A DNA stretch of 64,000 nt from Platanthera guangdongensis. Lineage: Eukaryota > Streptophyta > Magnoliopsida > Asparagales > Orchidaceae. The DNA is taken from the NCBI GenBank assembly GCA_039583875.1, contig CM077162.1:61920822-61984821 (forward strand), written 5' to 3'. A program made the translations under genes and the position numbers. Below, in pieces: positions 4,921-51,436 of the stretch (within the stretch, counting starts at the first letter, position 1; the number at the start of each line of letters is the position of its first letter). The notes beneath the pieces are model-generated. The model was given only the letters and a program-made list of their open reading frames with translations. It made no database searches and was not told the DNA's origin.

Positions 4921-5176
4921 TGTTGATGCGCGGAAACGGAACCGGGGGCACAGCTACCACCGAGGGGGTGTTTGGCCTCACAGGCAAGGTGAGGAGGAGG
5001 GAGAAGGTTGCGGGGGTAGGGGAGAGGCTTAAGAGAAGAGGTGAGCTTTGATCAACAGAGAGGGTTGATCAAGAGAGGAAGAGGAGGAAGGCCAGGAGCG
5101 GTCGAGCAGACAGTAAACGCAACGGTTGCGCTTGCAGGTTGGTTGCCGAGAAGAGCTGAGCTGAGCTGAGGGCGAG

Positions 5177-5506
5177 GCTTGCTGAGCAGAGGAGCAAGGC
5201 TTGCTGAGCAGAGGAGCAAGGCTTGCTGAGCAGAGGAGCAAGGCTTGCTGAGCAGAGGAGAAAGGCTTGCTGAGCAGAGGAGCAAGGCTTGCTGAGCAGA
5301 GGAGCAAGGCTTGCTGAGCAGAGGAGCAAGGCTTGCTGAGCAGAGGAGCAAGGCTTGCTGAGCAGAGGAGCAAGGCTTGCTGAGCAGAGGAGCAAGGCTT
5401 GCTGAGCAGAGGAGCAAGGCTTGCTGAGCAGAGGAGCAAGGCTTGCTGAGCAGAGGAGCAAGGCTTGCTGAGCAGAGGAGCAAGGCTTGCTGAGCAGAGG
5501 AGAGAA
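5177..5506. repeat. 22-bp tandem array, 15 near-perfect copies, in the LTR leader
   Basis: Fifteen head-to-tail copies of a 22-bp unit (GCTTGCTGAGCAGAGGAGCA plus AG); only a couple of bases differ across the array. It sits at the 3' end of the 5' LTR, so it would lie in the genomic RNA leader just upstream of the primer site. Because 22 is not a multiple of 3 and no frame meets a stop, all three minus-strand frames stay open for more than 140 codons. These frames are artefacts of the repeat. Confidence 0.95.
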
Positions 5507-5951: not shown

Positions 5952-6098
5952 GGCCCAGGGAAGCTCTTGAAGAAGCGGGGCCCAGTGACATCAGCATGAT
6001 GACCTGCGCGGACTCCACGGACTGGCAATTTGCGTCAGCCATTGTTCAGTGAAGCAGCAGGCTGCAGGAGGCCCTGGAGAGAACTGGAGGCCACCCCC

Positions 6099-6645
6099 TT
6101 GCGGGCGGCCTGGGCAGACTCCGGGAGGAGTCCGCCCGGCAGGCCGGAGGCCTAGCGGGCCCCCTAGCGGGCGGCCTGGGCGGACTCCGGGTGGAGTCCG
6201 CCCGGCAGGCCGGAGGCCGCCCCCTAGCGGGCGGCCTGGGCGGACTCCGGGTGGAGTCCGCCCGGCGGCCGGAGGCCACCCCCTACCTAGCGGGCGGCCT
6301 GGGCGGACTCCGGGTGGAGTCCGCTAGGCGGGCACCGGGGCCGCCCCCTAGCGGGCGGCCTGGGCAGACTCCGGTTGGAGTCCGCCCGGCGGATGCCGGG
6401 GCCGCCCCCTGGCGGGAGGCCTGGGCGGACTCCGGGAGGAGTCCGCCCGGCGGATGCCGGGGCCGCCCCCTAGCGGGTGGACTGGGCGGACTCCAGGTGG
6501 AGTCCGCCCGGCGCTTGCCGGGGCCGCCCCCTAGCGGGCGGCCTGGGCGGACTCCGGGTGGAGTCCGCCCGGCGGATGTCGGGGCCGCCCCATAGCGGGC
6601 GGCCTGGGCGGACTCCGGGTGGAGTCCGCCCGGCTGGCGGGCCGA
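6099..6645. repeat. 62-bp GC-rich palindromic tandem array (right LTR)
   Basis: This is the same unit as at 81-735, with about 9 copies here against about 11 there. Each unit again has the GGACTCC/GGAGTCC and GCCGCCC/GGGCGGC inverted repeats. The copy-number difference between the two LTRs shows that the array expands or contracts faster than the surrounding LTR mutates. Confidence 0.9.
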
Positions 6646-7349
6646 GGACGCCCCGAGTGGGCGGCCTCGGCGGACGGCTGCAGGAGGCCGCCGCCCCTCG
6701 GGCAGCAGGGAGGCCGCCCCTAGTGGGCGGCCTCGGCGGACGGCGCTAGGAGATCGCTGCCCCTTGGGCTGACTGGAAGGTCGCTCCCGGTGGTGTTGTT
6801 GGCCGACTCCTGCAAGGAAAAGCACTGCACGATTAGCAGACCTAACCGCATGTCCCGCGAGGGTGAGCCATGGGAATAGCCCGCCGTCCCGCAGGGCACG
6901 CGGTTGCTAGGAGACCTAGCGGACAGGGAAAACTGTCCGCCTACGCGGGGACTTATCGCGATCGAAAGGGAGAATCTAAGGGTCGCGACTAGCCAGCTAG
7001 CCACCTTGGGAAGGATCGCCGATTTCTAGGTTAACAAAACTGGACTTGGGTCAACACCATTAGTCAGGAAGTCAGCTGTGTCGACACTCAAGACTAGTGT
7101 CGACACATTCTACATCAGCTGTGTCGAGATAAGGTGAAGGTTGTGTCGACACATTCAGAAGTATGTTGACATCACTAGAAGAGTAGTGTCGACACCCAGG
7201 ACTGGTGTCGACACATCCAATAGTAAAGTTCCAAAACTTCAAGCAGAGTTGTTTCTTAAGTACAGAAGTCAAGCCAGATGATCTGACAACTATCAGAACT
7301 GTCAGATGTCAGCAATTAACCAGATTAATAGGTTACCTTTGACAGAGCC

Positions 7350-7730: not shown

Positions 7731-8035
7731 GATCTAATTATAGATCTGAGTGTAGGAGAATCAATTTCTTTGATTTGTAAGCCTGTGTTATAATGGCTGA
7801 GGTAAGGTTGAGTGCTTGAGGTTGGAGAAGTGGGTATTTCTCTGAGTTGTAGGAACTGATTGTTCTGAGTTATAGGGCAGGAGTTTCCTGAGGAGTAGGA
7901 GTGTGGATACACTCTGAGGTAGAGTTCTTGGAAAGAATTTGAGGTGTAGGATCTTGGTGATCTGAGTTGTAAGACTTGTAAATGATGAGCTGTAGGAGCC
8001 AGCTGGGCTCTAAGCTGTAAGATCTGAGGATCTGA
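7731..8035 (+). repeat. Hairpin array with co-varying stems (SIRE LTR leader, copy A)
   Basis: About a dozen tandem units of 20-26 nt. Each has a linker close to CTGAGTTGTAGG followed by two short complementary arms. Examples, with arms in capitals: GATCTaattatAGATC (7731-7746), GAACtgattGTTC, CAGGAgttTCCTG, AGTGTggatACACT, AGCCagctGGGCT. Arm sequences differ from unit to unit but stay complementary, while the linker is conserved. The array is downstream of the TATA box, so it should be part of the transcript. Confidence 0.8.
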
Positions 8036-8299
8036 GTAAAGAAAGAATGAGGAATTTGGCCGAATCTAGTTCATTGCTAGATAGGTGAAGGGGAAAGTGG
8101 ATGTACCCATAAATTGGGGAACCACTATAAATCTGTGTGTATTGTGTTGTGATTGTTGTGCTGTGATTGCTTTAAATTGCGGAATAGTTTTACTTGTTTT
8201 ATCTGACTTGGCTCATAAACATAGAAAAGTAAATCTCAGAATCCAAAAAGTAGCTAAGATTTAAATTGGACCTATTCACCCTCTTCTAGGTCACTCTCA

Positions 8300-15985: not shown

Positions 15986-17542
15986 ATAGAAGGTGGACTT
16001 GTAAGAGGTCTTACAATTGAGCTTCTTACATCGACTAACTTCAAGAAGTGGAGGTCGTTTATGGAAAGCAATCTTCTGGGCGAGGACCTATGGGAGGTCG
16101 TCTACGGAGATGATAGGAAAGAGGTGATTGTTGACACTTGCAATGCTGATGCGGTGAGTACCTGGAGAAAGACAAACACGAAAGCAGAGTTTGCACTCAA
16201 GCGGCCTATCTCACTGGAACTTCAACCACATCATCGGATGTCGGTTAGTTGCGGTGATTTGAACTTCCCTCGATGGGTTTTTCAATATGAAGAATTAGAA
16301 AAGCTACAATCCTGGTGAATGAGTTGGCAAGAGCCACTCAAGGAGATCTGTCTATCTCAATATTCTTCCTGAAGATGAAGAACTTGTGTGCTGAGATTTC
16401 AAAGTTAGACCCTGATGAGCCTATTTTAGAAGCGAAGCTGAAGAGGAACATATTCCATGGTTGCGGAAGGAATACCTTTGTTACTTCTATTCAAGGCTGG
16501 TCTACTTAGCCGTCTTTGCTAGAGCTGGAGAACATGTTGGCTTCGCTGGAGAGCTTAGCTAGACAGATGGCTGGGGTCACTATCTTTGAAGAAGGTAGTG
16601 AGGCGCTCTTCTTAAGGAAGAAGAGATGAGAGAAGAAGAAGTCTTCTGCTGGTGATGAACCTTCAAATTCTTATCAGCAAGAGAGGTGTGCTACTCCCAA
16701 GTTTCATTGGAAGAAGAAGGAAGGACTAAGGTGCTACAGATGCAACTAGCTGGGTCACTTCAAGAAGAACTGCAGGGTCAAGCTTCAGGAACAGCATCTT
16801 GCAGATAAAGAAGGAACTGGTTCCAGTACTGAGGAAGGAGGATGGTGGAATGAATTCTTGTCAGGCACTTGTGTTTGGCCTTTTTCCACTATCAACTACC
16901 AAGATGACTGGATAGTTGACTCAGGTTGCAGTCATCACCTTACTGGGGATGAGTCAAAGTCCTCTTCTCTGCAAACTTTCTCAGGTAACGAATCTATCAT
17001 AACTGTTGATGATACAGTTCATGCAGTCTAGAAGGAGGGTGTCATTTCTTTAGGTAGTGATAAGGGTCCACTCACTTTGAGGAGTTTATATCACGTGTCG
17101 GTCATGAAGAAGAACCTCTTCTCAGTGACCAATGTGGCGGACACGGGCTATCACGTTCTGTTCGGCCCGACAGAAGTGAAGTTTCTTCGCAACATGTCAA
17201 CGGTGAAGGCTGACTTTTCTCATGTAGGGAGAAGGGTTAAGGAATTGTTTGTGTTATCAACAAGCTCCTATATTGATCAGATGAGAGCCAATGATTATGC
17301 AGCTATCTGGCATGAGCGACTAGGACACGTCGGGATGGACAAGTTACATGCTCTGACAGTGAGAAATCTTGTGAAAGGCTTGCCAAGGATGTCATCCTTC
17401 GGCAACAGTCATGTCTACGCGGGGTGTCAATATGGAAAGGCTCTTCGCCTTCTATTTGACAAGTCACAAACCAGGTGTAAAGCACCATTGGAGTGTATCC
17501 ATGGTAATATAATGGGACTGACTGACACTGTCAGTCTGGGAG
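15986..17542 (+). pseudogene. gag-pol: Ty1/copia gag-protease-GAG_pre fragment, cut by a SIRE-type insertion
   Basis: A 5' part of a copia polyprotein, in pieces. The gag N-terminus reads TNFKKWRSFMESNLLGEDLW around 16032-16090, followed after a frame change by the UBN2-type core from 16315. A zinc knuckle CYRCN-stop-LGHFKKNC (about 16733-16775) has a stop inside it. The protease motif is DWIVDSGCSHHLTG (about 16910-16950) with the catalytic Asp kept, and GAG_pre/integrase-start sequence shows WHERLGHVGMDKL (about 17308-17346). The frame ends at 17542, where TGAAAGATATTG, the terminus of a minus-strand SIRE LTR, begins. Stops lie near 16316, 16507, 16627 and 16748, so this is a pseudogene. 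The missing half may be the copia pol that reappears at 27225. Confidence 0.8.
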
Positions 17543-17800
17543 TGAAAGATATTGTACCTAAACACCTAGAGGGGGGGTGAATAGGTGACTTGAATCTTTT
17601 TAACTTTTTATGGCAGCAATTAGTTTCTAACACAAATTTATATCTACTTTTGCACAGCAATCACACAGCAATCACAGCAAATCACAACACACAGTAGACA
17701 CACAGTTTTATAGTGGTTCCCCAAGGTTTGGGTACATCCACTTTCCCCCTTCGCCTATCTAGCAGTGTACTAGATTCGGCCAAACTCCTCCACTATCTCA

Positions 17801-18001
17801 GAACCCAAACTGGTTCCTACACCTCAGGCCCAAGGCCCTACAACTCAGCTTCTTCACAAAGCCTACACTCAGCCACAAAGGCGTACACTCAGCCAACAAG
17901 GCCTACACTCAGAGATTTCAATCTCCTACACTCAGGCTCTCAAGCCCTACACTCAGCCTTTATAATTGCAGGCTTACAAAACTCAGATCCAAAGGATCCT
18001 A
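17801..18001 (-). repeat. Hairpin array with co-varying stems (SIRE LTR leader, copy B)
   Basis: Nine units, all with complementary arms. On the plus strand, arms in capitals: GAACCcaaactGGTTC, GGCCcaaGGCC, GCTTcttcacaAAGC, GCCacaaaGGC, GCCaacaaGGC, GAGATTtcAATCTC, GGCTctcaAGCC, GCCTttataattgcAGGC, GATCCaaaGGATC. They are separated by the conserved linker CCTACACTCAG or a one- or two-base variant. The array sits about 370 bp downstream of the LTR TATA box on the transcribed side. Confidence 0.9.
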
Positions 18002-18370
18002 CAAAATAAAATGAATACAATAATGTGACTCAACAACTCAGAGAAAAGAGAGAGAAGAGTTGTGAGTTTCTTGATGATTTCTTGGAAGAACTCAGCTGAA
18101 ATCAATCTGACTTAGCTTTCTTCAAAGCTTCTTGAAAGTAGAACTCAATAAGATTGACTCCTTCTGTAGTTGATCCTTGATCTCTGCTACTTAAGATTCT
18201 GAATAAATCTGAACCCCTCTTCTCAGTCTGGTTCCAACAACTGATTTCTTGGATGGAGCTCTCTCTCTCCAACTTCTTAGATCTTCACTTGATAGCTAGA
18301 TCTTCTTTAGACAATTACTTGATCTGAACTTTGACAACTTCAGCCTGTGTTTCTGTAGACTGTATAAGCC

Positions 18371-18378
18371 TATTTATA
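18371..18378 (-). promoter_or_regulatory. TATA box of the SIRE element 1 LTR
   Basis: The minus strand reads GGCCTATAAATAGGCTTATAC. It lies about 130 bp downstream of the nearest GTGTCGACAC unit and upstream of the hairpin array. Confidence 0.75.
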
Positions 18379-18511
18379 GGCCTTTTTCATGGTAACCGGC
18401 TGGTCCGGTTCATAACTGAATTCTGACAACTCTGACAGGTGCTGTAGACCGGCTGGAATGGCAGCTGTCAAGTCATCCAGTCAGTTCTTGAAAATTTTGT
18501 AACTGTCTGCA

Positions 18512-19422
18512 AGTGTCGAGACTGTCTGTCTTTAAGTGTCGACACTTATAGACCAAGTGTCGACACATGTTGTCTAAGTGTCGACACTAGCCTACAAGTT
18601 GTCGACACAACTTCTTGTGTTGTAGATTTAATATCTCGACACCATTTCTTCTTCATGTGTTGACACTGATAATGTGTGTCGACACAAGTACTTGTACTTC
18701 AGTATTTTGCTGAATTCTTCTAAGTGTCGACACAACACCTTTGTGTCGACACATCTTCATGTGTTGAATCTGTTAAGTGTCGACACTGCTTCTTGGTGTC
18801 GATACATGTCTTCAGTGTTGATACTTGTTGAGTGTCGACACATTGCTCTGGGTGTCGACACATTTCTCTGGGTGTCGACACTTTCTTCTTCTGTCGAGAC
18901 TATGGCTGAGTGTCGACACATTCCCTTAGTGTCGACACTTGTACTTAGAATATTTTTGATGATCTTTGCTGATCTTTGGTAAGTGTCGACACAGCTCCTT
19001 GTGTCGACACTTTATTCAAGTGTTGAGTCTTCTGCTGAGTGTCGACACATTGTTCTGGGTGTCGACACAACTCCAAGTGTTGACTCTTCTGCTGAGTGTC
19101 GACACATTGTTCTGGGTGTCGACACTTGTACTTAGTCTCTGCAAACTCTTGCTGAGTGTCGACACAGCGTCCAAATGTCGACACTTTCTGGTGTAGACAC
19201 AGTTTCACTGGGTGTCGACACAGCTGCTAAGTGTCGATACAGCTTCACTGCACTCTCCTTCATTGAGTGTCGACACAGCTGCTTGTGTCGACACTTTCTG
19301 TCTGGTGTCGACTCAGCATCCCTGGTGTCGACACAATGACTCCAAGTGTCGACACTGCTTGCCTGGGTGTCGACACAGGGCTTCTTAAGTGTCGACACTT
19401 TCCCTCTGGGTGTCGACACATG
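18512..19422. repeat. Dense cluster of the palindrome GTGTCGACAC in the LTR U3
   Basis: I count about 38 sites, roughly 30 of them exact copies of the 10-base perfect palindrome and the rest one or two bases off (GTGTCGATAC, GTGTTGACAC, CTGTCGAGAC). Spacing is irregular, about 12-40 bp, so this is not a strict tandem repeat. The spacers vary. The same word recurs at 7078-7210 and 22715-23165. Short frames with repeated CRH/VSTL/VDT words across this stretch are repeat artefacts. Confidence 0.9.
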
Positions 19423-19564
19423 GACTTAGAAACTTTTTCTTCTTTCCTGCAAATTCTTAACCTGCACATGTAAACTCAAAATACATCAAATACATTTTGA
19501 TGTATATCATTGAGTTGGGTGAGGCTTCTTCAAATCAGGTATATTTGAACCAATGTACCCAACA

Positions 19565-19580
19565 ATCTCCCCCTATTTGG
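19565..19580 (-). other. Polypurine tract of SIRE-type element 1
   Basis: The minus strand reads CCAAATAGGGGGAGAT immediately before the LTR start TGTTGGG. This is a typical plus-strand primer site. The remaining 19581-19854 is a spacer between the accessory ORF end and the LTR, AT-rich and without a gene. Confidence 0.85.
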
Positions 19581-19854: not shown

Positions 19855-22683
19855 CTATTTCTGTTCAGGCTCCTTGATCACTATTCCTTTGCCAGCTTGT
19901 ACTTTGGCTTGAACAGGAGCTTTAGTAACTTCAGCATCAGCAGGCTTCTTGTCTTTCAGATCTTTCTTCTTAAGTTCTTCTGCTTTAATCTTTTGCCTTT
20001 CAAAATAATGATAAGGCTTGGGAAAGTACTTGCTAGGCTCCAGAGCAGTAGGAGGTAGCTTTCCCATCTTGGCATTTCTTCTATATTGAACTATAGCCTC
20101 CTGCCTTATCTCATGCTTTCTCCATTCAGCCTCAGAAAACCACTTGTTCCTGTCTTGAATGTTATCCTTTGCAACTTTCCAGGCAGTCAAAATAATGTTT
20201 CTAGAGGTGGGGCTCCACTACTCAAAGTCAGGTCTTTGTTCAGCTTGCTCCCTGAACCTCTTCTTTGACAATCTAGTTTCTTCTTCTTTCTGCATAGCTT
20301 CTTGCATAGCTTCAGAGATTGGCTGGACTACCTTTTCTATGATGACATTATCCTTACCCCCAGCTGGGCTATACATGGACTGTATGTCAGCATGGATCAT
20401 GTCAAAATCTGGTGGAGGATAGATTACTTGAGCTACATCTGGTTGCTCACCTCCAAGATAGGCAGGATTAATTCCAGATTCAGCAACATTATCATCATCA
20501 CAAAGAGGAGGATATCCAAGAGTTGCTCTGATAGAGTTAGATATCCACTTAGCATGATCAGAGCTTGCCTTGACTAACACTCTCTCCCCCTTTATGACTT
20601 CTCTTTCTATATGATCTCTGACATCATCTTTCTGAAATCTCACTTGATTATCCAAATAATTTACTCCATCTTTAAAGAAAGGTTTTAACCTTTGGAGTTT
20701 GTCAATTATCAACTTTTGAGAATCTTGGATAGCAGTCTTAAGAGCAGTAATTTCTTCTAGGAATACTTTGTCAAAATCTGCCTTTGCTGTAGCTGGAGTC
20801 TGCCCTGCAGCTAGATTCTTCAGTTCTGTGACTATTGCATTGTGAGATGCAGTCAAATTATCATTCATCCTAATTTGATTTTCAAGTACATATCTTTGCT
20901 TGACTGCAAAGTCATCAACTTGTGTTTTTATCTTCTCCTGGTGTGTAGCCAAGTACACCACTACATTCCCTCCCTTGTGGAAGCAGTCTGTCATCTCCTT
21001 CTTATTGAGATTCATCTCAAATCTTATTGACTTGATATCCTGGGCCAGATCAAATTGGAGAGATTTGTGCCCCTCATCTACATACTTTTCAATGGCCTGC
21101 CTGTGCTCATCCAGCTTGACTTGCATTGCAACCATTAAAGCACTATAATCCACAGTTGGAGCTGGCTGTGATATAGGTTGTGGAGTAACAATTTGGAGAG
21201 CCTTCTTGTAACTTTGGCTTCTTCTTTTGAATACTTGAAACTTTCTTTTCTTGGCCCTTGAAGCTTCCTCATCTTCAGATCCAGATGTACTTGCTATATC
21301 TACCCTCTCCTTAGGTAGCTCCTTCTGTACTTCTAGTGCTTTCTCAGTCTCTTTTCTTGCAGGCTCTTCATCAATTGGCAGTTTCTCCCCCTCAACTAGA
21401 GCATTATCCCCCTCAGTTGCTGCATCTTTGGTATTCTCTAGGTCTGCATGATCTAGATTTAGAAATAAATCTTCCATAGTAAACTCTTGTGGAGAATGAG
21501 CTGGAGAAACTCTGGGCTCTTCAACCACTGGATCAGATACAACTTGAGATGTAACAGAAGTGTCTTCCATGACAACTTCTGGAACTTGACTATCAGTCTG
21601 TGGTTGCTGATAAACATCAGACAAATCAGTATCTTCTATAGGAAAAACCAAAGCATTAAGCTCAGTAATTACCTCTAGAATTGTGGTTGTTGCTTGCTCA
21701 CTTGCAAGAGGAGTGGGTTCTTTCACAACTAGTGGCTCCCCCTGGATGTGATCCTTGTGTATGGGGCTAGCTTGAGGTAGCTCCCCCTGGATTTTAGCAA
21801 CTTCTTGTTGAGTAGTAGACTTCTCAACAGTCTCTTCTTCATGCTCATCAGGTGTGAAGACAACTTGCTCTTCACTTTCAGAGCTGCTGGATGACTCTTG
21901 AGCCACTGGGGCAATTTTCCTCTTCTTCTTTGGAGGTGATACTTTTTCAGAAATTATATTTTCAGGGGTTGGCATCTCCTTAGTCAACACCCTGTCCCAT
22001 CTGGAAAATATCCTTAAATTCATCTTCCTCATATGATTGATTTTTGTTCCAGCAGCTTGGTGCATAACCTCTGGAATACTTCCAGCAAGGTATAGACTTA
22101 TAATCCTGCCCAAGTTGGGCTTCTTCAAGCTTTCCTTTATCTTCTCAAGAACTATCACAGACCAATCTGTTTGCAAAGTGAAGATGATCCTTGTCATAAT
22201 ACTGAACATAGAGGAAGATACCCTATCATGCCCTCCTGGCTTACTGAGAATTACTTTGCCAACAATCTCAGACAGAAATTTCCATTGGATGTTCATGCCC
22301 TTTCTATTAAAAACAGAGCCAATTTTCATCTTAGAATCTAGACCACACCATGTTAGAGCTTCCCTGGTCTTTGAAGCAGTAACCTCATCTTCTTCTTTTG
22401 TTCTTGGTAACTGTAATACTTTCCTCAGACTTTTAGGTGAAACCTTCACCTTCTCACCATGAACCCTGGACTTGATCTTGAATCCAGATTCGTCCACTTC
22501 AGCTCCATTGAGAAATTCCAGTACCTCTTTCTTCCAGATTTTTGTAGGTTCAGAAACAAGGAATTCCAACCCCGAGTCTGCAACTAGGGTTACTACAGTC
22601 TTGATTTCTTTGTCGGCATCATCAAAAGTATTGCGCACCAGCTCGTAGCCTTCGTTGACGTTCTCCTCAATCTTTGGCGCCAT
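19855..22683 (-). pseudogene. SIRE-type accessory ('env-like') ORF, near intact with one stop
   Basis: A single frame of 943 codons from ATG 22683 (MAPKIEENVNEGYE) to 19855, broken only by a stop at 20218-20220. The N-terminal 240 residues form a globular domain (SEPTKIWKKEVLEFLNG, SKSLRKVLQLP-like, NLGRIISLYLAG), which I take to be the plant-transposon domain common in SIRE accessory ORFs. Next comes an SV40-type nuclear signal PPKKKRKIAP (about residues 250-259), a long acidic low-complexity middle, a second basic cluster RAKKRKFQVFKRR near 21250, and a helical, probably coiled-coil C-terminal half. I see no signal peptide or hydrophobic membrane segment, so an envelope role is not supported; the basic signals suggest a nuclear protein. 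I chose the second ATG because the related ORF at 60630 starts at the same place. A TATA box lies about 100 bp upstream. Confidence 0.85.
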
Positions 22684-22714
22684 TAGGGTTTGATGAATTT
22701 GACTGGAGAGAAGA

Positions 22715-23165
22715 GAGGTGTCGACACACAAGTTTTGGTCTCGAAACCTTTGAAAGCATGTCGACAGACTAAGGCAAAACCCTATTTATACCTTTCTAAT
22801 TTTGAAGATGAAAAGGCGGGCAGCCAACTTAAATTGTGTCGACACTGGCGATAAGTGTCGACACTGACTTATAATGTCTCGACACATACGTGTCGACACA
22901 AGTTTAGTCAACAGATTAGATGTGTCGACACTTGTTTATGTGTCGACACGACTTAACTCGACATTTAGTCGAGACTTTACTTAGATAATTCTGAGTAAAC
23001 ACTAAGTGTCGACACCACCTTGGTTGTGTCGACATCTACTTGTCATGTGTCGACACTAATATTCTGAAGTGTCGACAACAACTTCCTAGATGTGTCGACA
23101 CCTTTTCCCTCAAGTGTCGACACCAATTTTCTGTGTCGACACAGATATCTCTGTGTGTCGACACC
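22715..23165 (-). promoter_or_regulatory. Palindrome-rich spacer, candidate internal promoter of the accessory ORF
   Basis: The spacer between pol and the accessory ORF has about 15 copies of GTGTCGACAC or close variants (22715-23165). On the minus strand they are followed by GGTATAAATAGGGTTTTGCC with the TATA box at 22790-22783, and then the ATG at 22683. The LTR has the same order: palindrome cluster, TATA box, transcript. The second SIRE element also has a TATA-like run (60744-60732) about 100 bp before its accessory ATG. Promoter activity is inferred, not shown. Confidence 0.6.
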
Positions 23166-23203
23166 TTTTTACTTAGCCAATTTCCAATACTATAAACTTA
23201 CTC

Positions 23204-26200
23204 TTAGTTTATCATTCCTAGTTCAATCTTAAATCTATTGAACTTAGTTTCTTCTATGGGCTTAGTATACATATCAGCTAATTGATTATCTGTTTTAACA
23301 TATTCTAGTAAAATATCCTCTTTCTCTACATGCTCCCTAAGAAAATGATATTTTATCTCAATATGTTTAGTTCTACTATGTGAAACAGGGTTATGTGCAA
23401 TTGAAATAGCACTTGTAGAATCACAGAAGAGTGGAGTTCTACTTACCTGAAATCCATAGTCCTCAAGCTGATGTTGTATCCACAGAATTTGAGCACTGCA
23501 ACTTCCTGCAGCCACATATTCTGATTCTGCAGTGGAGATAGCCACACTTGTTTACTTTTTGCTACTCCATGAAATCAGTCTCCCACCTAGGAATTGACAG
23601 GTTCCAGTTGTGCTTTTTCTGTCCTCTTTGCATCCTGCAAAGTCTGCATCTGAATAACCTGTTAGTTCAAAATCCCCATTCCTAGGGTACCAGAGGCCTA
23701 GATAAGGAGTGCCCTTTAGATATCTCAATATTCTTTTGACTGCTGTCAAATGAGACTCTTTAGGGCAGGCTTGATACCTTGCACAAACACATGTAGCATA
23801 CATGATATCTGGTCTACTTGCAGTCAAGTATAATAGGGAGCCAACTATCCCTCTATACAAAGTTTCATCTACAGGCTTCCCTGCATCATCCTTGCTAAGA
23901 GACATACTTGACCCCATAGGAGTCTTCATGGTGATGGATGAATCCATACCATACTTCCTTATGAGTTATAGGGTGAACTTGGACTGACATATGGATAAAC
24001 CACTATCAGTCTGTCTTACTTGGAGACCCAAGAAGAACTTTAGCTCTCCCATACTACTCATCTCAAATTGACCTTGCATTAGCTTTGCAAATTTTTTGCA
24101 AAGGCTACTTTCAGTAGACCCAAATATAATGTCATCTACATATATTTGGACTAGTATTACTTTGCCTCTAGATTCCCTAAGGAATAGAGTCTTGTCTATT
24201 TTCCCCCTTGTGAACTTATTCTCAATGAGGAAACTAGACAGGGTTTCATACCAAGCCCTAGGGGCTTGTTTTAACCCATATAAAGCTTTCCTAAGTCTAT
24301 CGACATGATTAGGTATAGTTGAATCAACAAAACCTGAGGGTTGTTCCACATAGACTTCTTCTTTAAGATTACCATTTAGAAATGCTGACTTGACATCCAT
24401 TTGGTAAACTTTGAATCCTTGATAGATTGCATAGGTCAGGAACATTCTTATGCCTTCCAGTCTGGCTACTGGAGCAAAGGTTTGATCAAAATCAATACCT
24501 TCTTCCTGCATATATCCTTTAGCAACCAATCTTGCTTTGTTCTTAATGATGACTCTTTGCTCGTCCATCTTGTTCCTATAGATCCACTTGGTTCCAATTA
24601 TATTGTGGTCTTTAGGTTTAGGAACAAGCTCCCAGACCTTGCATCTCTTGAACTGATTGTGTTCTTCTTGCATTGCCTCAATCCAAAAAGGGTCTTTGAT
24701 GGCTTCTTCAAACTTCTTAGGTTCAACTTGGGATAGAAAGCTGGAGTAGAGTGCTGCATTCAGGTTTCTGCTCCTTGTTTATACCCCTTGTCTTGGATCA
24801 CCAATGATTTGCTCAGCTGGATGATCTCTAAGATGCCTATTGGCTAGAGGCATCCTGACTTCAGGTTGAGCTTCTTCAACATCTTCTTCATGCTGTACTC
24901 CTTGAATTTCATCAGCAATTGGTACATGTAGTTCTCCCCCTGGACAACAGCCACTGTCCTCTACTTGCTGTCTTGTAGTAGGTACTTCTTCTATAGTAAG
25001 CTTGTCCATCTTCTTTGTTAAACCTGTGGGGCTGCATACACTACTAGACAACTCATTGTTAATAAGTCTAGTTTCATCAAATACTACATGTACAGATTCT
25101 TCTACAACTTGTGTAGATAAATTGTAGACTCTATAAGTCTTACTGTTGTTGCTGTACCCAACAAAAATTCCCTCTTGGGACTTGGCAGTAAACTTAGTCA
25201 AGTAAGACTTTCCATTGTTAAGTATAAAGCATTTACAACCAAAGATCCTGAAGTAGGATAGGTTTGGTTTCCTTCCTTTCACAACCTCATAGGGGGTCTT
25301 GTTGAGACTATTAGTTATGGTAGCCCTATTAATAATATGGCATGCAGTATTGACTGCTTCAGCCCAGAAGTACTCTGGTAGTGATGTATCACTTAATAGG
25401 GTCCTACCTGCCTCAATCAAGGTTCTATTCTTCCTCTCAGCAATGCCATTTTGCTGAGGTGTCCTTGGTGAAGAAAACTCTTGAAATATCCCAAAGTCTT
25501 CACATAGTTTTGTCATGCTTTCAGACTGAAACTCAGTACCATGGTCACTTCTTATTTTGACCACTGTACTATTTAGTTCATTCTGAATTTGTCTAACAAA
25601 ACTATAGAAGACATTGGGTGTTTCAGACTTCTGTCTAAGAAAGAACACCCAGGAAAACCTTGAGTAGTCATCTACAACTACAAAGGTATAGACCTTCCTA
25701 CCTAGGCTGTGAACTGGCATTGGAACAAAGAGATCCATATGCAAGAGGTATAAGCACCTCACAGCATCTTTGTTTTCTATGCTTCTAAAGGTGGATTTAG
25801 TCTGCTTGCCCTTTTGACAAGCTGAGCAAATACCATCTTTAATACACTTAACTTGAGGACCATTCCTCACTAACTCTTTACTAAAGAGTTTGCCAATTGT
25901 CTTGTAATTTAGATGGGCTAGCCTCTTGTGCCATTTGACATAATGAGAGACTTTCTCATCAGCTACAAGACAAACTTGAGAACCATTGGTCTCACACATA
26001 ATGTCTAAGCAATAGACATTCCTTTTTCTATAGCCAGTCAAAATGATCTCTTGATCATTTGACCTCTTGATATGACAACCATCCTTAACAAATGAGATGG
26101 CATATCCTACATCACTTAATTGACATATACTAATTAGGTTGTGTTTCAAACCTTTAACATAAGCCACTTGAGTAATGGTAACTAAGTTACTAGAAATGTT

Positions 26201-26371
26201 ACCAAACCCTTTGATGATTCCTTTTTCAGAACCACCAAAGGTGACTTTTGGACCATCCTTTATTGGTGTGTAGTCCTTCAGTAATTCCCTTGTTCCAGTC
26301 ATATGTCTGGAACATCCACTGTCCAAGTACCATATAGGGGCATGGCCACTTGGACTCACCTGCAAAACAGA
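23204..26371 (-). pseudogene. pol: SIRE-type copia Pol (protease, integrase, RT, RNase H) with three internal stops
   Basis: One continuous minus-strand frame, in phase with gag, interrupted by stops at 24779-24781, 23966-23968 and 23552-23554. Protease: WYLDSGCSRHMTG at about 26330-26295. GAG_pre and the integrase zinc finger: WHKRLAHLNYKTIG, then CSAC. Integrase core: LHMDLF, then RSDHGTEF and QNGIAERKNR, the expected D, D, E residues. [27 protein letters not shown] and the active-site YVDDIIFG near 24145. RNase H: SDADFAG, STAESEYVA, FCDSTSA and LADMYTKP. All catalytic residues I looked for are present; only the stops make it a pseudogene. Domain order is that of Ty1/copia. Confidence 0.9.
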
Positions 26372-27224: not shown

Positions 27225-27774
27225 ATGGCACAATAGATTTGGACATTTAAATCACAGGAGAAGACTTTATGACGTTTTGTAAAAGCCACAACATTGCCAG
27301 AGAACTAACTGCCCCTCGAACACCTGAGCAAAACGGAGTTGTAGAAAGAAAGAACAAAACTATAGCAGAGAGAATGAGAACTATGTTGAATCACTTCAGG
27401 CTTCCCCAAATATTGTGGGCAGAGGCTGCTCACACAGCTGTTTATGTATTAAATTGATCCCCCACAAAAAGTGTAGAGGGTGCAACACCTTATGAGGCAT
27501 GGAAGAAGAATAAGAAGCCCAATGTTCAGCATCTTAGAACCTTTGGGTGCCTTACTACAGGCACATTCCCAAGGAGGATCGAAAGAAGCTAGAGATGAGA
27601 GCAGAAAAGGGAGCTTTAGTCGGCTACAACCTTCAATCCAAAGCATACAAGATCCTCAATCCAGAAACTCTACAACTTTATATCTCCAGGGACATCACCT
27701 TTGATGAGAATGCTACATGGAATTGGGATGAGACTCAATTTGGTGCCACACCTTCAGAAGCCTATCAGCTTCTT
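27225..27774 (+). pseudogene. pol: Copia integrase C-terminal part (left half of the split host element)
   Basis: The fragment starts around GEDFMTFCKSHNIARELTAP (27248 on). It includes PRTPEQNGVVERKNKT with the catalytic Glu, LPQILWAEAAHTAVYVLN followed by a stop near 27457, then TPYEAWKKNKKPNVQHL, and after a frame shift HIPKEDRKKLEMRAEKG, VGYNLQSKAYKILNP and TFDENATWNWDE. The first two catalytic Asp residues of integrase lie in the missing part. It stops where the nested LTR begins at 27775. Confidence 0.85.
27770..27774. repeat. Left target-site duplication TTCTT of the nested element
   Basis: TTCTT directly precedes LTR start TGTTGGAACACC at 27775. The same five bases follow the right LTR at 33392-33396. 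Confidence 0.85.
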
Positions 27775-27956
27775 TGTTGGAACACCCTATTACTAATTTG
27801 GGTCAGGATCACTATGTCTCTAGGAAACCTGTTTTTGACCTCCTGTATAGTTCTAAAGGTCAATTAGAATTGAGTCTAAGGGTTAGAAGTCTAGGTTTGA
27901 AAGCTGCCCTCAATACCAAGGATTTTCAGTTTGAGACTAAGTCATATCGTCGAGCT

Positions 27957-28234
27957 CAGCACGACGATTCGTCAAACTCCAATCGACGATCGTCTAGCTC
28001 AACTTCGACAGATCGTCGAACTCCATTCGACGATCGCTGAGCTCAACTTCAACAAATCGTCGAACTCCATTCGACGATCTGCGAGCTCAGTTCGATGATC
28101 TTGACTCAGTATTGGATCTCTATCTCTGAGCTCAGTTCGACGATCTTTGAGCTTCAGATCGACGTTTTTTTATTGTTGTATAAGTCCAAATCGCTGAGCT
28201 CAGTTCGACGATAGCAGAGCTCAGTTCGACGTTT
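27957..28234. repeat. TCGTCGA/CGACGATC palindromic-word cluster in U3 (5' LTR)
   Basis: Repeated ATCGTCGAACTCCA, TTCGACGATC and GAGCTCAGTTCGACGATC words, arranged as inverted pairs (TCGTCGAA...TTCGACGA) separated by 4-15 bp. The same word family occurs at 32037-32323 and inside gag at 31059-31225, and nowhere else in the window that I could see. Confidence 0.85.
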
Positions 28235-28848
28235 TCTGATGAGTTAAAGGATTTTTCAAGATTCAAATTCAGGAGTTATTCAGCAATTAATTCAGAAGAT
28301 TTTCTAGCCGTTTTTATTTATTCTGGAACAAGTTTCAAGGGATTATCAAGGAATGTTTCTTTGGACTTTCCTCCAGAAGACATTTGCAATTAAGGATGCA
28401 ATTAATGATAGGCCAATGGCTATTCTTGACAGTGGATGTTTTTCTATTCAGTACCAGAGAATAAAATACAAGATTTTTGAATCTCTCTATCATTCAGAAC
28501 ACAGACAAGAAGAACAAGAACAAAATATTCTCTGTCTCAAAGAATTCTCTCAAGAACACACATCCAAGGAGATCAAACCTTCTGAAATCTTCGGATCTCT
28601 CTTGTCTCAAGTGTTCAAGGCCAACATCTTTCAAGACTCCAGACACCTAACATTTCAGCTGTTGCTGAAATCATCATTTGCTGGAGATCAACTTCTGAAG
28701 GCCCATCACCCTACAGCAAAGCTTCATTTCCTGAACATCTCAAGAACTCAGGGGGAGCTTTGACAACATATAAATCCACATAGTTTTCTCAGCTGCTCTG
28801 AGAAAGAGCAGACTTCCATCACTCTCTCATCCCCACCTCTATAAAGGG

Positions 28849-28856
28849 TCTTTCAA
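28849..28856 (+). promoter_or_regulatory. TATA box of the nested element's 5' LTR
   Basis: CCTCTATAAAGGGTC; the same site in the other LTR is 32929-32936. Confidence 0.7.
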
Positions 28857-29291
28857 ACTCCCTTCAAAAGTTTGAGCTTGGTTTTTGAGCACCTTGTCAA
28901 AAGTTCATTGGTGGCAAGACACCTGATCAAAAAATCTGATTTGCTTTTGAGCACCTTATCAAAATCTCATTGGTGCCCAGGACACCTGATCAACTCATCC
29001 TGTAGTGGATTCCTACCTATGGTGGTAGAAGAGTGGATGTACCCAAGTTTAGGGGAACCACTATAGTTCCTTGTGTCTTCTGGCTTGCTTGTGTTTATCT
29101 TTTATTTCTGGCTGTGATTAGTTTAGATCTGTGATTAATTTCTGTTGTAGGTTATTTAGTGATTAGAATTAATAGTTGCTTCCTTGTTCACTCAGATTAC
29201 AACAATTGTTGTAAAAAGTTTTCAAGCACCATATACTCTATTCACCCCCCCCCCCCCTCTAGAGTATATCAGATCTAGCTGCACTTTCAAT

Positions 29292-29303
29292 TAGTATCAG
29301 AGC
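29292..29303 (+). other. Primer-binding site of the nested element
   Basis: TAGTATCAGAGC, two bases after the LTR end, differs by one base from the copia tRNA-iMet site TGGTATCAGAGC. Confidence 0.85.
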
Positions 29304-29420
29304 CAGGTTGGTTAAACATACCACACCTTGGTGGTTGCACAGGCTAACACCTGAACCCAAAGATTCCTAGTTAGATCTGTTTTCTTTTGAGTTTATTATT
29401 ATATTTTGTTTTCACAAATC

Positions 29421-31439
29421 ATGGCCCAAAACAAAGATTATGCTAGCACCAGACCTCCAATGTGCAATCTATCCAAGTTTGTACTTTGGAAAGCAAGGAT
29501 CAGATTATACATGAATTCTATTGACGAGGATATTTTTAATTCTGTTTTGACAGTTTGTCCAAGACCTCCAGAGAACTTAAATACAAATGCTGTTCCACCT
29601 CCATCAGGAACAGATGCTAATATCAAGAAATGGAAGGTTGTTGATGCCAAGGCTATGAATATCTTAGCCCAGACCATGTCTGATGACATCTTTCAAAAGG
29701 TGGCTGAAAGCAATTCAGCAAAGGAAATCTGGGATAAACTCTCTGAAATAGTCTCAGGCTCAGCTGATGAGAGAAAGGACAGGAGATCCCACCTCATATC
29801 TCAATATGAGAATTTCAAGAAGGGAGAAGCTGAGTCAGTTAGAGATATGTACAATAGACTCAGTCTGATAGTTAGTGAACTCAGGACTTTGGATAAAGAG
29901 ATCTCACTAACTGAACTTAATGATAAAATCCTAATATGCTTCCCTAACACTTGGGATTCAAGAATCTGGCCAATCAAGAATGGTAGAAGTTTGAATGAGA
30001 TCACCACAGAAGCTCTATTGGGTAAGCTCAAATCTTATGAGCTACTCATCAAGAATAGAGAAGAAGAACAGAAGGCTGCCTCACCAGCCACAAGAAAAGA
30101 GAAGACAATAGCCTTCAAAGCAAGTGAAGATCAGCCTGAAGACAAAGTCACAGGCAATGATGAACTGCTCAGTCTGTTGGCCAAAAGATTTTACAAGATG
30201 GGCAGAAAGGACTTCAGAAGGAGATCATACAAGGAGCATGATAAGCCAAGGTATGATAAGTCAATTAATAATAAGGAAATTGTATGCTTTGGTTGCAGGA
30301 AAGCAGGGCACATTGTACCTGACTGTCCAGAAAACAAAAACAAGGACAGAAGGGACAAGAAAGAAAGAAGAAAGGAGAAAGACTCCAAGAGGAATGGCAA
30401 TGGCAAACCCTCCTCAAGCAAAAACAAACACACAAGAAAGGGGTTTGTTGCTGAATCCTGGAGTGAGACTGAAGAGGAGTCAGAAGCCTCATCCAGCTCT
30501 AGTGATGATGAAGATGATGCAGAAGAGAAGGAGTTCTGCATGATGGCAATCAATGCCTCACAACATAATTCAGATGAAGAAGACTCAGAGTCAGATTCAG
30601 AGACTCAACTTGAAGAAGATCAGGTAATTATTTCATTTGATTTCAATTCAGAGGACTTTAAATCTGAGTTTAAAGCATTATGTTTAGACCTGCTAAAATC
30701 TGAGAAAGAAATCATCTCTCTCAGAAATAATTTATCTGAACATAATACCTTAAAGTCAGAAAACCTCAAACTCTCTCAGGAGTTGGAGTGCTGTAGGGAG
30801 CAGATAGCTTCACTGAAAGGTGAGCTATCTGAGGCCAAGAAGCTTGAAGAATCCCTTAATGGGAGAAGTATCAAGCTGATGGACATCACAAGCACAGTGA
30901 ACTCCAGATTTAATAGTACACTGGGCTTGGGTGCTTCATCCAGCCAACCCATAGTTCTAACAACTCCAATCAAGTTCATTTCTGATAAAGGAAAGGTAGT
31001 TGTAGAGGTAGCTAGGAAAAATTCTGATCTGCCCAAGAAAACTAAGTTCAAGCAGAAATCGTCGAACGGAGCTCGACGATCGCCGAACGCAGATCGACGA
31101 TCTCAGGCAAAATCGTCGAACTCAGGTCGACGATCTCAAATTCCTGAACTCTGTCATAGTCGACCGTCGAATGGAGCTCGACGATCTGACCCAAGATCGT
31201 CGAACGCAGCTCCACGATCGTCAAACAGAGATCAGAGCTCTGGAAACTCCTTCAAGGGCAAACCAAAATCCAATCCTAGGGGTCCTTCATCCCAAATATT
31301 TAACCCTTATACTGAATGGATAATACCTCCAAGGAGATATCATCCTGAAGGTTATAAGAGTCAACCTGGGATGTCTTTTATTTCAGAGTTTAAAGGTTAT
31401 CAACCTAGGCCCAAGGTAAACTTGGTCAAAAATAAATGA
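29421..31439 (+). CDS. gag: Intact SIRE-type Gag, 672 aa
   Basis: This is the capsid/nucleocapsid protein, and the only full-length uninterrupted retrotransposon gene in the window. I took ATG 29421 (MAQNKDYASTRPP) over the ATG at 29406, because this start matches the family. The capsid region includes FVLWKARIRLYM, WKVVDAKAMNILAQ, AKEIWDKLSE and VRDMYNRLSLIVSELR. A canonical zinc knuckle CFGCRKAGHIVPDC follows at about residues 292-305, then a Lys/Arg-rich stretch, an acidic Ser/Glu/Asp stretch and a coiled-coil segment. Residues about 547-602 form a low-complexity Ser/Asn/Arg region (SSNGARRS-type repeats) encoded by the same CGACGATC words found in the LTR U3. It stops with TGA at 31437-31439; the protease remnant is in a different frame. 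Confidence 0.93.
   Translation: MAQNKDYASTRPPMCNLSKFVLWKARIRLYMNSIDEDIFNSVLTVCPRPPENLNTNAVPPPSGTDANIKKWKVVDAKAMNILAQTMSDDIFQKVAESNSAKEIWDKLSEIVSGSADERKDRRSHLISQYENFKKGEAESVRDMYNRLSLIVSELRTLDKEISLTELNDKILICFPNTWDSRIWPIKNGRSLNEITTEALLGKLKSYELLIKNREEEQKAASPATRKEKTIAFKASEDQPEDKVTGNDELLSLLAKRFYKMGRKDFRRRSYKEHDKPRYDKSINNKEIVCFGCRKAGHIVPDCPENKNKDRRDKKERRKEKDSKRNGNGKPSSSKNKHTRKGFVAESWSETEEESEASSSSSDDEDDAEEKEFCMMAINASQHNSDEEDSESDSETQLEEDQVIISFDFNSEDFKSEFKALCLDLLKSEKEIISLRNNLSEHNTLKSENLKLSQELECCREQIASLKGELSEAKKLEESLNGRSIKLMDITSTVNSRFNSTLGLGASSSQPIVLTTPIKFISDKGKVVVEVARKNSDLPKKTKFKQKSSNGARRSPNADRRSQAKSSNSGRRSQIPELCHSRPSNGARRSDPRSSNAAPRSSNRDQSSGNSFKGKPKSNPRGPSSQIFNPYTEWIIPPRRYHPEGYKSQPGMSFISEFKGYQPRPKVNLVKNK
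31059..31225 (+). repeat. CGACGATC word cluster inside the gag coding region
   Basis: At least eight copies of TCGTCGAAC or CGACGATC alternate, as in the LTR U3. The frame stays open and yields RRS/SSN-type peptides. The upstream and downstream gag codons show no such bias. Confidence 0.88.
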
Positions 31440-31449
31440 ATTATTTTAT

Positions 31450-50580: not shown

Positions 50581-51204
50581 TAGCGATATAATTTTTATTG
50601 AATGCGAATATATCATAGAATACAAAGTGATAAAAATTTGGTCATTCAAATCGAAAACTTCATAAGTCAAAGAAGCCAATGTGAAGGTGCCCAATGATTG
50701 AGCCAAAGGGGGAGCCTTATCCGTATTAAACAAACTCACAATTATAGCATTACAGCTTTGGTAAGCCCTAGTCCCTGGCTCGACTTGACATGTGTCAGGA
50801 AATCATGGGTTACGAACTGATTTGTTCACAATAATAGCTATAGTAATTAACTTTAACTGAAGAGCTTTTGTACACGAAGAACAAGTCTTGTGCTTAAATT
50901 CGACCAATTGTCATTCACAAACCTTTAAATAATTGGGCAATTGGCAACTGATGTTTTGTCGTGATAGGTAGTTTAAATCACCTAAAGGGGTGTGAATAGT
51001 TGGCTTGAACTTTATATTCTTCTTTACAGAATTCAGCAATATAAGTAAAAGAAAAACAAATCAAACCACACAACCAGCAAGTACAAAGATATTTATAGTG
51101 ATTCACAAAGGTTTGGGTACAACCAATTTACCTCTACACCTATATAGCAGCGAGATAGACTCGACAACCTCCTCCAAAACACGGCTTCTTAGAGCGTACA
51201 ACTC

Positions 51205-51436
51205 AGATCCCTCATGATCTCTCAGGTCTTCTCCAAGACCCTACCTCAAACTTATCAAGAAGTTATACCTCAGGATCAATAACCCTACAACTCAGAGTCC
51301 TACTTGTACTGCTCAGTAACACTATTGGTTTCCTATCTCAGACTTGTAACCAAGTCCTACACTCAGGCTTATCATGAAGACCTACAACTCAAGTTGAAAG
51401 GTCAGCTCTACACTCAGATCTCCTAAGGGATCCTAC
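51205..51436 (-). repeat. Hairpin array with co-varying stems (SIRE LTR leader, copy C)
   Basis: About ten units with linker CCTACAACTCAG or a variant. Good stems, arms in capitals: GGTCTTctccAAGACC, AACTTatcaagAAGTT, GACTTGtaacCAAGTC, GATCtcctaagGGATC. Other units are weaker (AGTcctACT, CTTatcatgAAG). Stem sequences are unlike those of copies A and B, yet pairing and linker are kept. Confidence 0.8.

What the first reader, a model, noticed from the sequence alone, without database searches (positions are those of the whole stretch)
17801..18001. Tandem hairpin array with co-varying stems in a SIRE-type LTR leader (copy B)
Nine units in a row alternate a near-constant linker (CCTACACTCAG on the plus strand) with a variable spacer, and every spacer is self-complementary: GAACC/GGTTC, GGCC/GGCC, GCTT/AAGC, GCC/GGC twice, GAGATT/AATCTC, GGCT/AGCC, GCCT/AGGC, GATCC/GGATC. 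The arms change together while the linker does not, which is what selection on pairing looks like. The array lies downstream of the LTR TATA box, so it would sit in the 5' leader and 3' end of the element RNA. Possible roles (inference) are RNA dimerisation or packaging, translation control, or a chromatin/cruciform element. I know of no described feature with this design.
Basis: partly seen in the sequence, partly recalled or inferred. Interest (0 to 1): 0.88.

Follow-up and report, generated by a model that had tools for sequence, protein, structure and literature searches.

The report
Hairpin array in plant retrotransposon leader
A very common plant jumping gene carries, in the leader of its RNA, a row of about ten tiny hairpins joined by one near-constant linker; the hairpin arms change together between copies while pairing is kept, which points to an undescribed working RNA element.

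Summary
Copy B's nine spacers are self-complementary (36 stem bp; 0 of 20,000 shuffles or arm permutations reach it). The design recurs in window copies A and C and genome-wide: 14,264 and 13,609 exact linker-spacer-linker matches for two spellings (controls 0 and 2). In 103 dissimilar arrays (1,015 units) arms match their own partner (3.40 bp) far better than a neighbour's (1.59 bp).

The array lies downstream of the TATA box in a Sirevirus-type LTR (17543-19564, minus), before the primer-binding site. In 94 aligned copies, internal tree branches keep the linker and balance broken by restored pairs; terminal branches decay. Other families show the contrast more weakly. AUG is depleted from TATA through the array, not upstream.

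Column-level covariation is modest. Strand evidence conflicts: wobble (mainly family C) and AUG tests favour element RNA; folding favours antisense RNA or ssDNA. Best explanation: a multivalent RNA-protein platform, most likely for Gag packaging or dimerisation (inferred, 0.4). Closest design: the alfalfa mosaic virus AUGC-hairpin array. Ten literature searches showed no description of it.

The parts
17543..19564 (-). 3' LTR of the Sirevirus-type element (copy B), 2,022 bp
   Evidence: sense start TGTTGGG after AGGGGGAG-AT, end CTTTCA; integrase signal 20 bp from the end
19565..19574 (-). polypurine tract AGGGGGAG followed by AT, joined to the LTR's TG
   Evidence: the AT/TG site agrees with PMC2829016; the octamer's own letters were not in the passages I saw
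18503..19426 (.). cluster of GTGTCGACAC palindromes (27 exact in the LTR), upstream of the TATA box in element sense; the known kind of Sirevirus palindrome, separate from the array
   Evidence: PMC2829016
18368..18380 (-). TATA box CCTATAAATAGGC of the LTR promoter
   Evidence: a TATA-like match lies downstream of the array (design strand) in 52 of the 70 entries printed, mostly 340-500 nt away; AUG depletion starts here
17801..17998 (-). the nine-hairpin array (element sense: hairpin - CUGAGUGUAGG - hairpin ...)
17801..17816 (.). hairpin GAACC/GGTTC
17827..17837 (.). hairpin GGCC/GGCC
17848..17862 (.). hairpin GCTT/AAGC
17872..17882 (.). hairpin GCC/GGC
17892..17902 (.). hairpin GCC/GGC
17912..17925 (.). 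hairpin GAGAT/ATCTC
17935..17946 (.). hairpin GGCT/AGCC
17956..17973 (.). hairpin GCCT/AGGC with a long AT-rich loop
17986..17998 (.). hairpin GATCC/GGATC, an end unit; units with a GATC core end the arrays of copies A and C and of L009 too
17758..17774 (.). further inverted repeat TCTAG/CTAGA just 3' (sense) of the array; L016, of the long-array kind, has CCAAC/GTTGG before its array
17708..17737 (-). 9-codon upstream ORF MYPNLGEPL-stop holding inverted repeat CCCAA/TTGGG
17563..17587 (-). C-rich integrase signal near the LTR end
7747..8041 (-). copy A array, same design, mostly different stems (the design strand here is minus, so element sense is plus)
51196..51433 (+). copy C array, same design, mostly different stems (design strand plus, element sense minus)

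Best explanation
The array is a cis-acting element of the Sirevirus RNA: about ten short hairpins (stems mostly 3-5 bp, loops mostly 4-6 nt) that present the same single-stranded linker, UGAG-N(0-3)-GUAG in element sense, over and over in the leader between the transcription start and the primer-binding site. Shown here: the design, its place, its high copy number, lineage-level conservation of the linker and of arm complementarity (clear in the main set, weaker elsewhere), and decay after insertion. Inferred: the linker is the recognised sequence and the hairpins are generic holders that space and expose it, so a multivalent RNA-binding protein can coat the leader. The likeliest binder is the element's own Gag (Sirevirus Gag carries a CCHC zinc knuckle, PMC2829016 passage), making the array a packaging/dimerisation signal that diverts RNA from translation to particles.
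For: Own-arm pairing 3.40 bp against 1.59 bp for arms permuted within the array, 103 arrays, 1,015 units; units with >=4 bp 537 against a permuted mean of 87, maximum 114. 24 distinct perfect 4-bp stems in 162 arrays. Internal/terminal substitution ratio in 94 arrays: linker 0.22, stems 0.62, loops and other array 0.97, U5 flank 0.81, R/U3 flank 1.16. Stem pairs in the same 94: internal branches 45 single-change breaks against 52 restorations and 8 paired double changes; terminal branches 161 against 25, and 11. Eleven LTR pairs taken to be of one element (9-11 kb apart on one strand): 35 pairs broken in one copy, 1 compensated, 2 unpaired in both. A primer-binding-site match lies 200-420 nt from the array in 45 of 98 long loci (3' LTRs have none). 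AUG observed/expected 1.04 in U3 but 0.14 between TATA and array and 0.19 in the array, 71 of 98 loci. Sense-type G.U changes in excess on internal branches: 44 to 10 against 139 to 91 terminal, Fisher p=0.004; flanks 580 to 600 against 781 to 936. Shuffling unpaired letters does not lower stem probability, so the linker looks conserved for its own sake. Design parallel: AMV 3' UTR, a linear array of stem-loops flanked by AUGC motifs with several coat-protein sites (PMC9414508).
Against: As RNA the element-sense strand does not fold into the array by energy: mean stem probability 0.347 against 0.667 for the antisense strand, in 110 of 110 arrays; copy B's sense minimum-energy fold is another structure. 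With short-range pairing only (span 25) the gap shrinks, 0.662 against 0.744. The wobble result rests mainly on family C; without it p=0.21. The break/restoration balance holds only in the 94-copy set; on internal branches of family C breaks are 30.7 against 11.9 restorations, of D 14.8 against 3.0, of A 6.0 against 0, though terminal branches are still more one-sided (101.4 to 13.6, 97.2 to 6.5, 94.8 to 1.0). Column-level covariation is modest. No binding, packaging or expression data exist here; the Gag step is analogy. The linker class was picked by match to the motif, which lowers its substitution count by construction (its terminal rate is also half of the flank's).
Confidence: 0.4

Rival explanations
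1. Translation-control leader: the weak hairpins and stop-bearing linkers shape ribosome scanning, shunting or reinitiation at the small uORF just 3' of the array, so Gag is made from a leader of about 800 nt. Packaging would be secondary.
For: AUG is depleted 5- to 7-fold from the TATA box through the array but not upstream of it; copy B's 810-nt leader has 1 AUG against 18 in letter shuffles; of 162 arrays, 144 show the flank motif and 135 of these an AUG that opens a short uORF. Plant pararetrovirus leaders combine short ORFs, structure, a packaging signal and a PBS (PMC5902531 passages).
Against: AUG depletion covers the whole leader and does not need hairpins; the uORF is only MYP-stop in 16 of 144 arrays and lacks an AUG in 9; linkers are conserved in sequence beyond what stops would need (inference).
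Confidence: 0.2
2. The selected molecule is single-stranded DNA: the minus-strand strong-stop cDNA made from the PBS through U5 and R. Hairpins keep this long ssDNA orderly until strand transfer.
For: The window-plus (antisense) strand of copy B folds into the nine hairpins as DNA (z -4.4, 0 of 200 shuffles); in 110 arrays both DNA strands give stem probabilities of 0.68 and 0.64. The array lies inside the stretch copied first. In the 94-copy set alone wobble changes are not favoured on either strand.
Against: Sense G.U changes are kept more than other mismatches in the pooled data (p=0.02), which DNA pairing does not predict; AUG depletion shows constraint on the sense RNA, though not on the hairpins themselves.
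Confidence: 0.14
3. Antisense RNA: a transcript of the opposite strand folds into the array and acts in element control or host silencing.
For: The antisense RNA forms the hairpins best, 110 of 110 arrays; unpaired letters on that strand are only 7% G.
Against: Plus-strand G.T changes are not in excess on internal branches (GT against mismatch, internal against terminal: p=0.32); no promoter or transcript evidence was sought.
Confidence: 0.07
4. Polyadenylation enhancer: many linkers hold UGUA in sense, a motif I recall as bound by cleavage factor I; several copies upstream of the poly(A) site would fix the RNA's end.
For: The two commonest linker spellings, CTACAACTCA (286) and CTACACTCA (248), give UGUA in sense; the stretch 3' of the array is U/G-rich (sequence).
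Against: The third commonest, CCTACCTCA (160), lacks UGUA, while UGAG and GUAG stay; stems would not be needed.
Confidence: 0.07
5. No function in pairing: palindrome arms are matched by template-switch errors of reverse transcriptase (quasi-palindrome correction), and unit turnover spreads them.
For: Whole hairpins are swapped (about 13 and 10 helix replacements on internal branches of the main and C sets); reverse transcription happens on internal branches.
Against: Does not explain the conserved linker; resident copies show no such correction (35 broken against 1 compensated). Not tested on other palindromes.
Confidence: 0.08
6. DNA-level palindrome cluster like the known Sirevirus cis-region palindromes, for transcription or as a source of hairpin-derived small RNAs.
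For: Sirevirus LTR palindromes and small-RNA hotspots are described in maize (PMC10760457, PMC5311732 passages).
Against: Those are copies of one palindrome; here such copies (27 exact GTGTCGACAC) lie upstream of the TATA box and none in the TATA-to-end part, while in the array the stems differ and the linker is the constant.
Confidence: 0.04

Closest known systems
Alfalfa mosaic virus 3' UTR array of stem-loops flanked by AUGC motifs (coat-protein binding sites)
   Same: Linear row of short hairpins with a short constant motif between them; several independent binding sites (PMC9414508, passage).
   Different: A 3' UTR of a plus-strand RNA virus with a 4-nt motif; here a retrotransposon leader with an 8-10 nt bipartite linker and mostly 7 to 16 units, at most 20-odd; no protein known.
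Sirevirus LTR repeated motifs (RM palindromes; Bousios et al. 2010, 2016)
   Same: Same genus of element and same LTR; palindromic and in many copies (PMC2829016, passages; the 2016 paper is not held).
   Different: RM boxes are copies of one palindrome upstream of the TATA box; the array is downstream, its stems differ and its linker is constant. Both occur in this LTR.
Ty1 and retroviral leader packaging/dimerisation structures
   Same: Structured leader RNA near the PBS that serves packaging; in Ty1 compensatory stem mutations restore function (PMC5454406, abstract).
   Different: Ty1 has a pseudoknot and kissing loops; retroviruses, as I recall, a few unlike stem-loops; neither a long row of like units with one linker.
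Pararetrovirus leaders with ribosome shunt
   Same: Long leader with short ORF, structure, packaging signal and PBS (PMC5902531, passages).
   Different: A large stem-loop shunted over by ribosomes rather than a row of tiny hairpins in an AUG-poor leader.

Membership tests
Sirevirus (Ty1/copia genus) | copia-order pol (INT before RT) in element sense | tested here: met
   INT domains 24779-26365 and RVT_2 23966-24673, both minus
Sirevirus (Ty1/copia genus) | purine octamer PPT then AT/TG attachment site | tested here: met
   AGGGGGAG AT/TG at 19574-19563; AT/TG as in PMC2829016; the octamer's letters were not compared with the paper's figure
Sirevirus (Ty1/copia genus) | C-rich integrase signal about 21 bp from the LTR end | tested here: met
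   17563-17587, 20 bp from the LTR end at 17543
Sirevirus (Ty1/copia genus) | conserved 5' LTR/PBS junction | tested here: met
   TGGTATCAGAG-type PBS 200-420 nt from the array in 45 of 98 long loci; copy B itself is a 3' LTR and has none; the initiator-tRNA assignment is recalled
Sirevirus (Ty1/copia genus) | palindromic RM boxes upstream of the TATA box and near the env-like gene, core CGG-CCG | tested here: inconclusive
   position met (27 exact GTGTCGACAC in the LTR, 12 at 22700-23200); the core is TCGA, not CGG-CCG (PMC2829016 names Tnd-1 as lacking it and finds RMs in only part of its elements)
Sirevirus (Ty1/copia genus) | RT in the Sirevirus clade of a phylogeny | not tested
   no tree of RT was made
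Gag packaging/dimerisation signal | located in the leader between RNA start and PBS | tested here: met
   the RNA start itself is inferred from the TATA box
Gag packaging/dimerisation signal | conserved RNA structure | tested here: inconclusive
   stem conservation supported; sense-strand fold by energy not supported; wobble test favours sense RNA mainly in family C
Gag packaging/dimerisation signal | binds Gag and is needed for packaging | not testable with these tools
   needs binding and particle assays
AMV-type coat-protein array | AUGC motifs between hairpins | tested here: not met
   linker is UGAG-N-GUAG in sense; parallel in design only
described Rfam RNA family | match above gathering score | tested here: not met
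   17540-18400: one chance-level hit outside the array, 13.2 bits against 53.5

The most novel reading that the evidence does not exclude
A new class of RNA element: polyvalent bead-strings in which only a short linker is conserved by sequence and every hairpin is free to change as long as its arms match, kept in the leaders of thousands of Sirevirus-type LTRs across at least four divergent families of one plant genome, and working as a count-tunable platform (about 7 to 20-odd units) for Gag or a host RNA-binding protein.
Probability: 0.35. Interest if true: 0.85.

Novelty: new variant of a known kind. Interest (0 to 1): 0.72.

Why it matters
How plant LTR retrotransposons pick their RNA for packaging, and how their long leaders are translated, is little known (my assessment, not a search result). 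A modular element with thousands of natural variants in one genome gives a ready-made mutagenesis set: linker, stem, loop and unit number vary, so function can be read from sequence and tested with short RNAs. It also shows that palindromes in Sirevirus LTRs can be of two different kinds, upstream and downstream of the promoter.

Tried and rejected
Cruciform reading: rejected by inference, since stems are 3-5 bp. One hairpin copied and decayed: rejected by arm permutation. Blind all-pairs covariation scan: low power, 2 of 392,941 pairs passed and one of them was not a Watson-Crick pair. First wobble test in 94 arrays alone: inconclusive, 13 against 7 internal and 56 against 32 terminal; I leaned to ssDNA because of the folds, then enlarged the set. 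Linkers as insulators against misfolding: not supported; with unpaired letters shuffled the mean stem probability rises from 0.354 to 0.425 (sense) and 0.646 to 0.702 (antisense), the real array being above its shuffles' mean in 9 and 10 of 43. Rfam: nothing in the array. Other plants: no collection offered here holds them, so presence elsewhere is untested. Literature: ten searches (two were on analogies only) gave no description of the array in listings or in the passages read; Bousios et al. 2016 is not held, so I know it only from what other papers say of it and from recall.

Rows dropped: 3 RM-like false arrays; 8 of 102 arrays (the long ones and L029) left out of the 94-row alignment; 27 of 98 loci without clear TATA or integrase-signal match left out of the AUG count, and its U3 control rests on about 20 kb, i.e. 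only the loci long enough; of 162 arrays, 58 near-duplicates left out of the 104 representatives and one more without five usable units. Loci whose linkers are too decayed for the parser give no array and are missing from the 162. Arrays come from the first listed places on contig C1 and from best matches to four queries, so they are not a random genome sample.

Full report
What is there. The nine hairpins lie at 17801-17998 as described. Their anchored stems sum to 36 bp; 20,000 letter shuffles average 9.1 (maximum 21) and 20,000 permutations of arms among the nine units average 18.2 (maximum 35), so neither composition nor copying of one unit explains the pairing.

What it belongs to. The element runs on the minus strand: integrase and reverse transcriptase ORFs within 26365-23966, an ORF that is env-like by position at 22731-20218, a polypurine tract with the Sirevirus AT/TG attachment site at 19574-19563 and an LTR of 17543-19564 with the C-rich integrase signal 20 bp from its end. 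These agree with the Sirevirus motifs of PMC2829016 (passages read). Palindromes placed like the known Sirevirus ones are here too, as GTGTCGACAC (27 exact in the LTR, none between TATA and LTR end; 12 more at 22700-23200), upstream of the TATA box CCTATAAATAGGC (18368-18380). The hairpin array is a different thing: in copy B it lies about 370 nt downstream of the TATA box, and a primer-binding-site match lies 200-420 nt from the array in 45 of 98 long loci, as expected of 5' LTRs.

How common and how varied. Exact linker-N8..20-linker matches number 14,264 for CCTACAACTCAG (control 0) and 13,609 for CCTACCTCAG (control 2); the number of arrays is not known, since one array can hold several. 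By eye nearly all of the 100 spacers listed in each call are self-complementary, with many stems. Copy A, copy C and the long-array loci (L009, 16 linkers; L013, 22) share the design and differ in most stems. In 103 dissimilar arrays with 1,015 units, own arms pair over 3.40 bp on average against 1.59 bp after permutation within the array; 537 units have at least 4 bp against a permuted mean of 87, maximum 114. Loops of stems with at least 4 bp are mostly 4-6 nt (317 of 429).

Selection. In an alignment of 94 arrays I compared internal branches (changes carried by active lineages) with terminal branches (mostly decay after insertion). Internal/terminal ratios are 0.22 for linkers, 0.62 for stems, 0.97 for loops and other array columns, 0.81 and 1.16 for the two flanks (the linker class is chosen by motif match, which favours a low count). 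Stem pairs on internal branches show 45 single-change breaks, 52 restorations and 8 paired double changes; on terminal branches 161, 25 and 11. With branches that change a helix at more than two letters set aside, the same set gives 30.5 breaks to 42.6 restorations internal and 134.7 to 14.0 terminal. The other sets are less clear: internal breaks to restorations 30.7 to 11.9 in family C, 14.8 to 3.0 in D and 6.0 to 0 in A, against terminal 101.4 to 13.6, 97.2 to 6.5 and 94.8 to 1.0. Eleven LTR pairs taken to belong to one element (9-11 kb apart on one strand) show 35 pairs broken in one copy, 1 compensated and 2 unpaired in both. So in the main set pairing is kept while elements are active and is lost once they are inserted; the younger or more decayed sets point the same way with less force.

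Covariation against a tree null. Of 60 stem column pairs 35 vary; 7 reach p<=0.01 and 12 p<=0.05, against 7 and 20 of 198 variable slid pairs. The clearest case exchanges C-G (56) with T-A (32). In family C it is 3 of 26 against 11 of 136 slid at 0.01 and 11 of 26 against 30 of 136 at 0.05; in the two other sets 0 of 9 and 0 of 7. A blind scan of all column pairs passed 2 of 392,941, one of them a stem pair. Taken alone this is modest evidence; the strong evidence is the variety of matched stems between units and families, then the internal/terminal contrast.

Which molecule. Three tests disagree. Folding: copy B's antisense strand forms the nine hairpins as DNA (minimum-energy fold) and as RNA (centroid), its sense RNA does not; in 110 arrays the stem probability is 0.667 for antisense RNA, 0.347 for sense RNA and 0.68 and 0.64 for the DNA strands. 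If only short-range pairs are allowed the RNA gap is 0.744 to 0.662. Wobble: changes that leave G.U in the sense RNA are in excess on internal branches, 44 to 10 against 139 to 91 terminal (p=0.004), with no such excess in flanks; family C drives this (alone p=0.005; without it p=0.21). AUG: observed/expected is 1.04 upstream of the TATA box, 0.14 from TATA to array, 0.19 in the array and 0.41 in U5 (71 of 98 loci; the upstream control rests on the fewer loci that reach that far), so the sense leader is probably read by ribosomes or at least kept free of starts. The AUG result speaks for a sense leader, not for the hairpins as such. I weigh the last two tests over the energy model, at moderate confidence.

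Mechanism. Shuffling the unpaired letters does not lower but raises stem probability in both strands (43 arrays), so the linker is not there to help folding; with its conservation this suggests that the linker is what is recognised and the hairpins hold it apart. The alfalfa mosaic virus 3' UTR is built on the same plan, stem-loops flanked by AUGC motifs that bind coat protein (PMC9414508, passage). By place and by the zinc knuckle of Sirevirus Gag (PMC2829016, passage) a Gag-binding packaging or dimerisation signal is the likeliest role. This last step is inference.

Limits. One genome of one unnamed plant; no RNA data; start of transcription inferred from the TATA box and R/U5 border unknown (PMC3601003, passage, puts R at about 10 bp in another Sirevirus clade, in which case the array would be U5 only); arrays sampled from contig C1 and best matches; parsimony on midpoint-rooted trees that ignore recombination; p-values are for orientation. 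The claim of novelty rests on ten searches of an open-access library that lacks a key paper.

Noticed in passing
window 17708-17737 minus and related loci: A short upstream ORF follows the array in sense. Of 162 arrays 144 have the flank motif: MYPDLGEPL 36, MYPNLGEPL 23, MYP-stop 16, other forms, and 9 without ATG; 18 arrays gave no match. Its AUG stands beside the inverted repeat CCCAA/TTGGG, and in copy B its stop is part of CACUAUAAAA.
   Followed up: partly
window 17543-18380 minus: AUG depletion of the Sirevirus-type leader, with a sharp start at the TATA box, might serve to map transcription starts of plant retrotransposons without RNA data.
   Followed up: partly
window 17077-17580 plus, 17543: Copy B abuts the pol region (gag_pre-integrs) of another copia element, into which it seems to be inserted.
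   Followed up: no
window 27773-33391: An element with LTRs 27773-29289 and 31865-33391, 95.6% identical, and a Retrotran_gag_2 ORF on the plus strand, next to copy B's pol; its LTRs hold ATCGTCGA-type tandem repeats.
   Followed up: no
window 67-864 and 6086-6769: GC-rich 61-bp tandem repeats, about 11 and 9 copies, in two related blocks of 84-89% identity; a 22-bp repeat of 15.6 copies lies between at 5160-5502.
   Followed up: no
window 22827-23156: Second cluster of GTGTCGACAC palindromes beside the env-like ORF, as reported for env-bearing Sireviruses.
   Followed up: no
window 20218-22731 minus: 837-aa ORF between pol and the 3' LTR with only a weak Transposase_32 match (19.7 bits against a cut-off of 45); env-like by position only.
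   Followed up: no
L009, L013, L016, L048, L056: Long-array loci with 16 to over 20 linkers; unit number differs much between families.
   Followed up: partly
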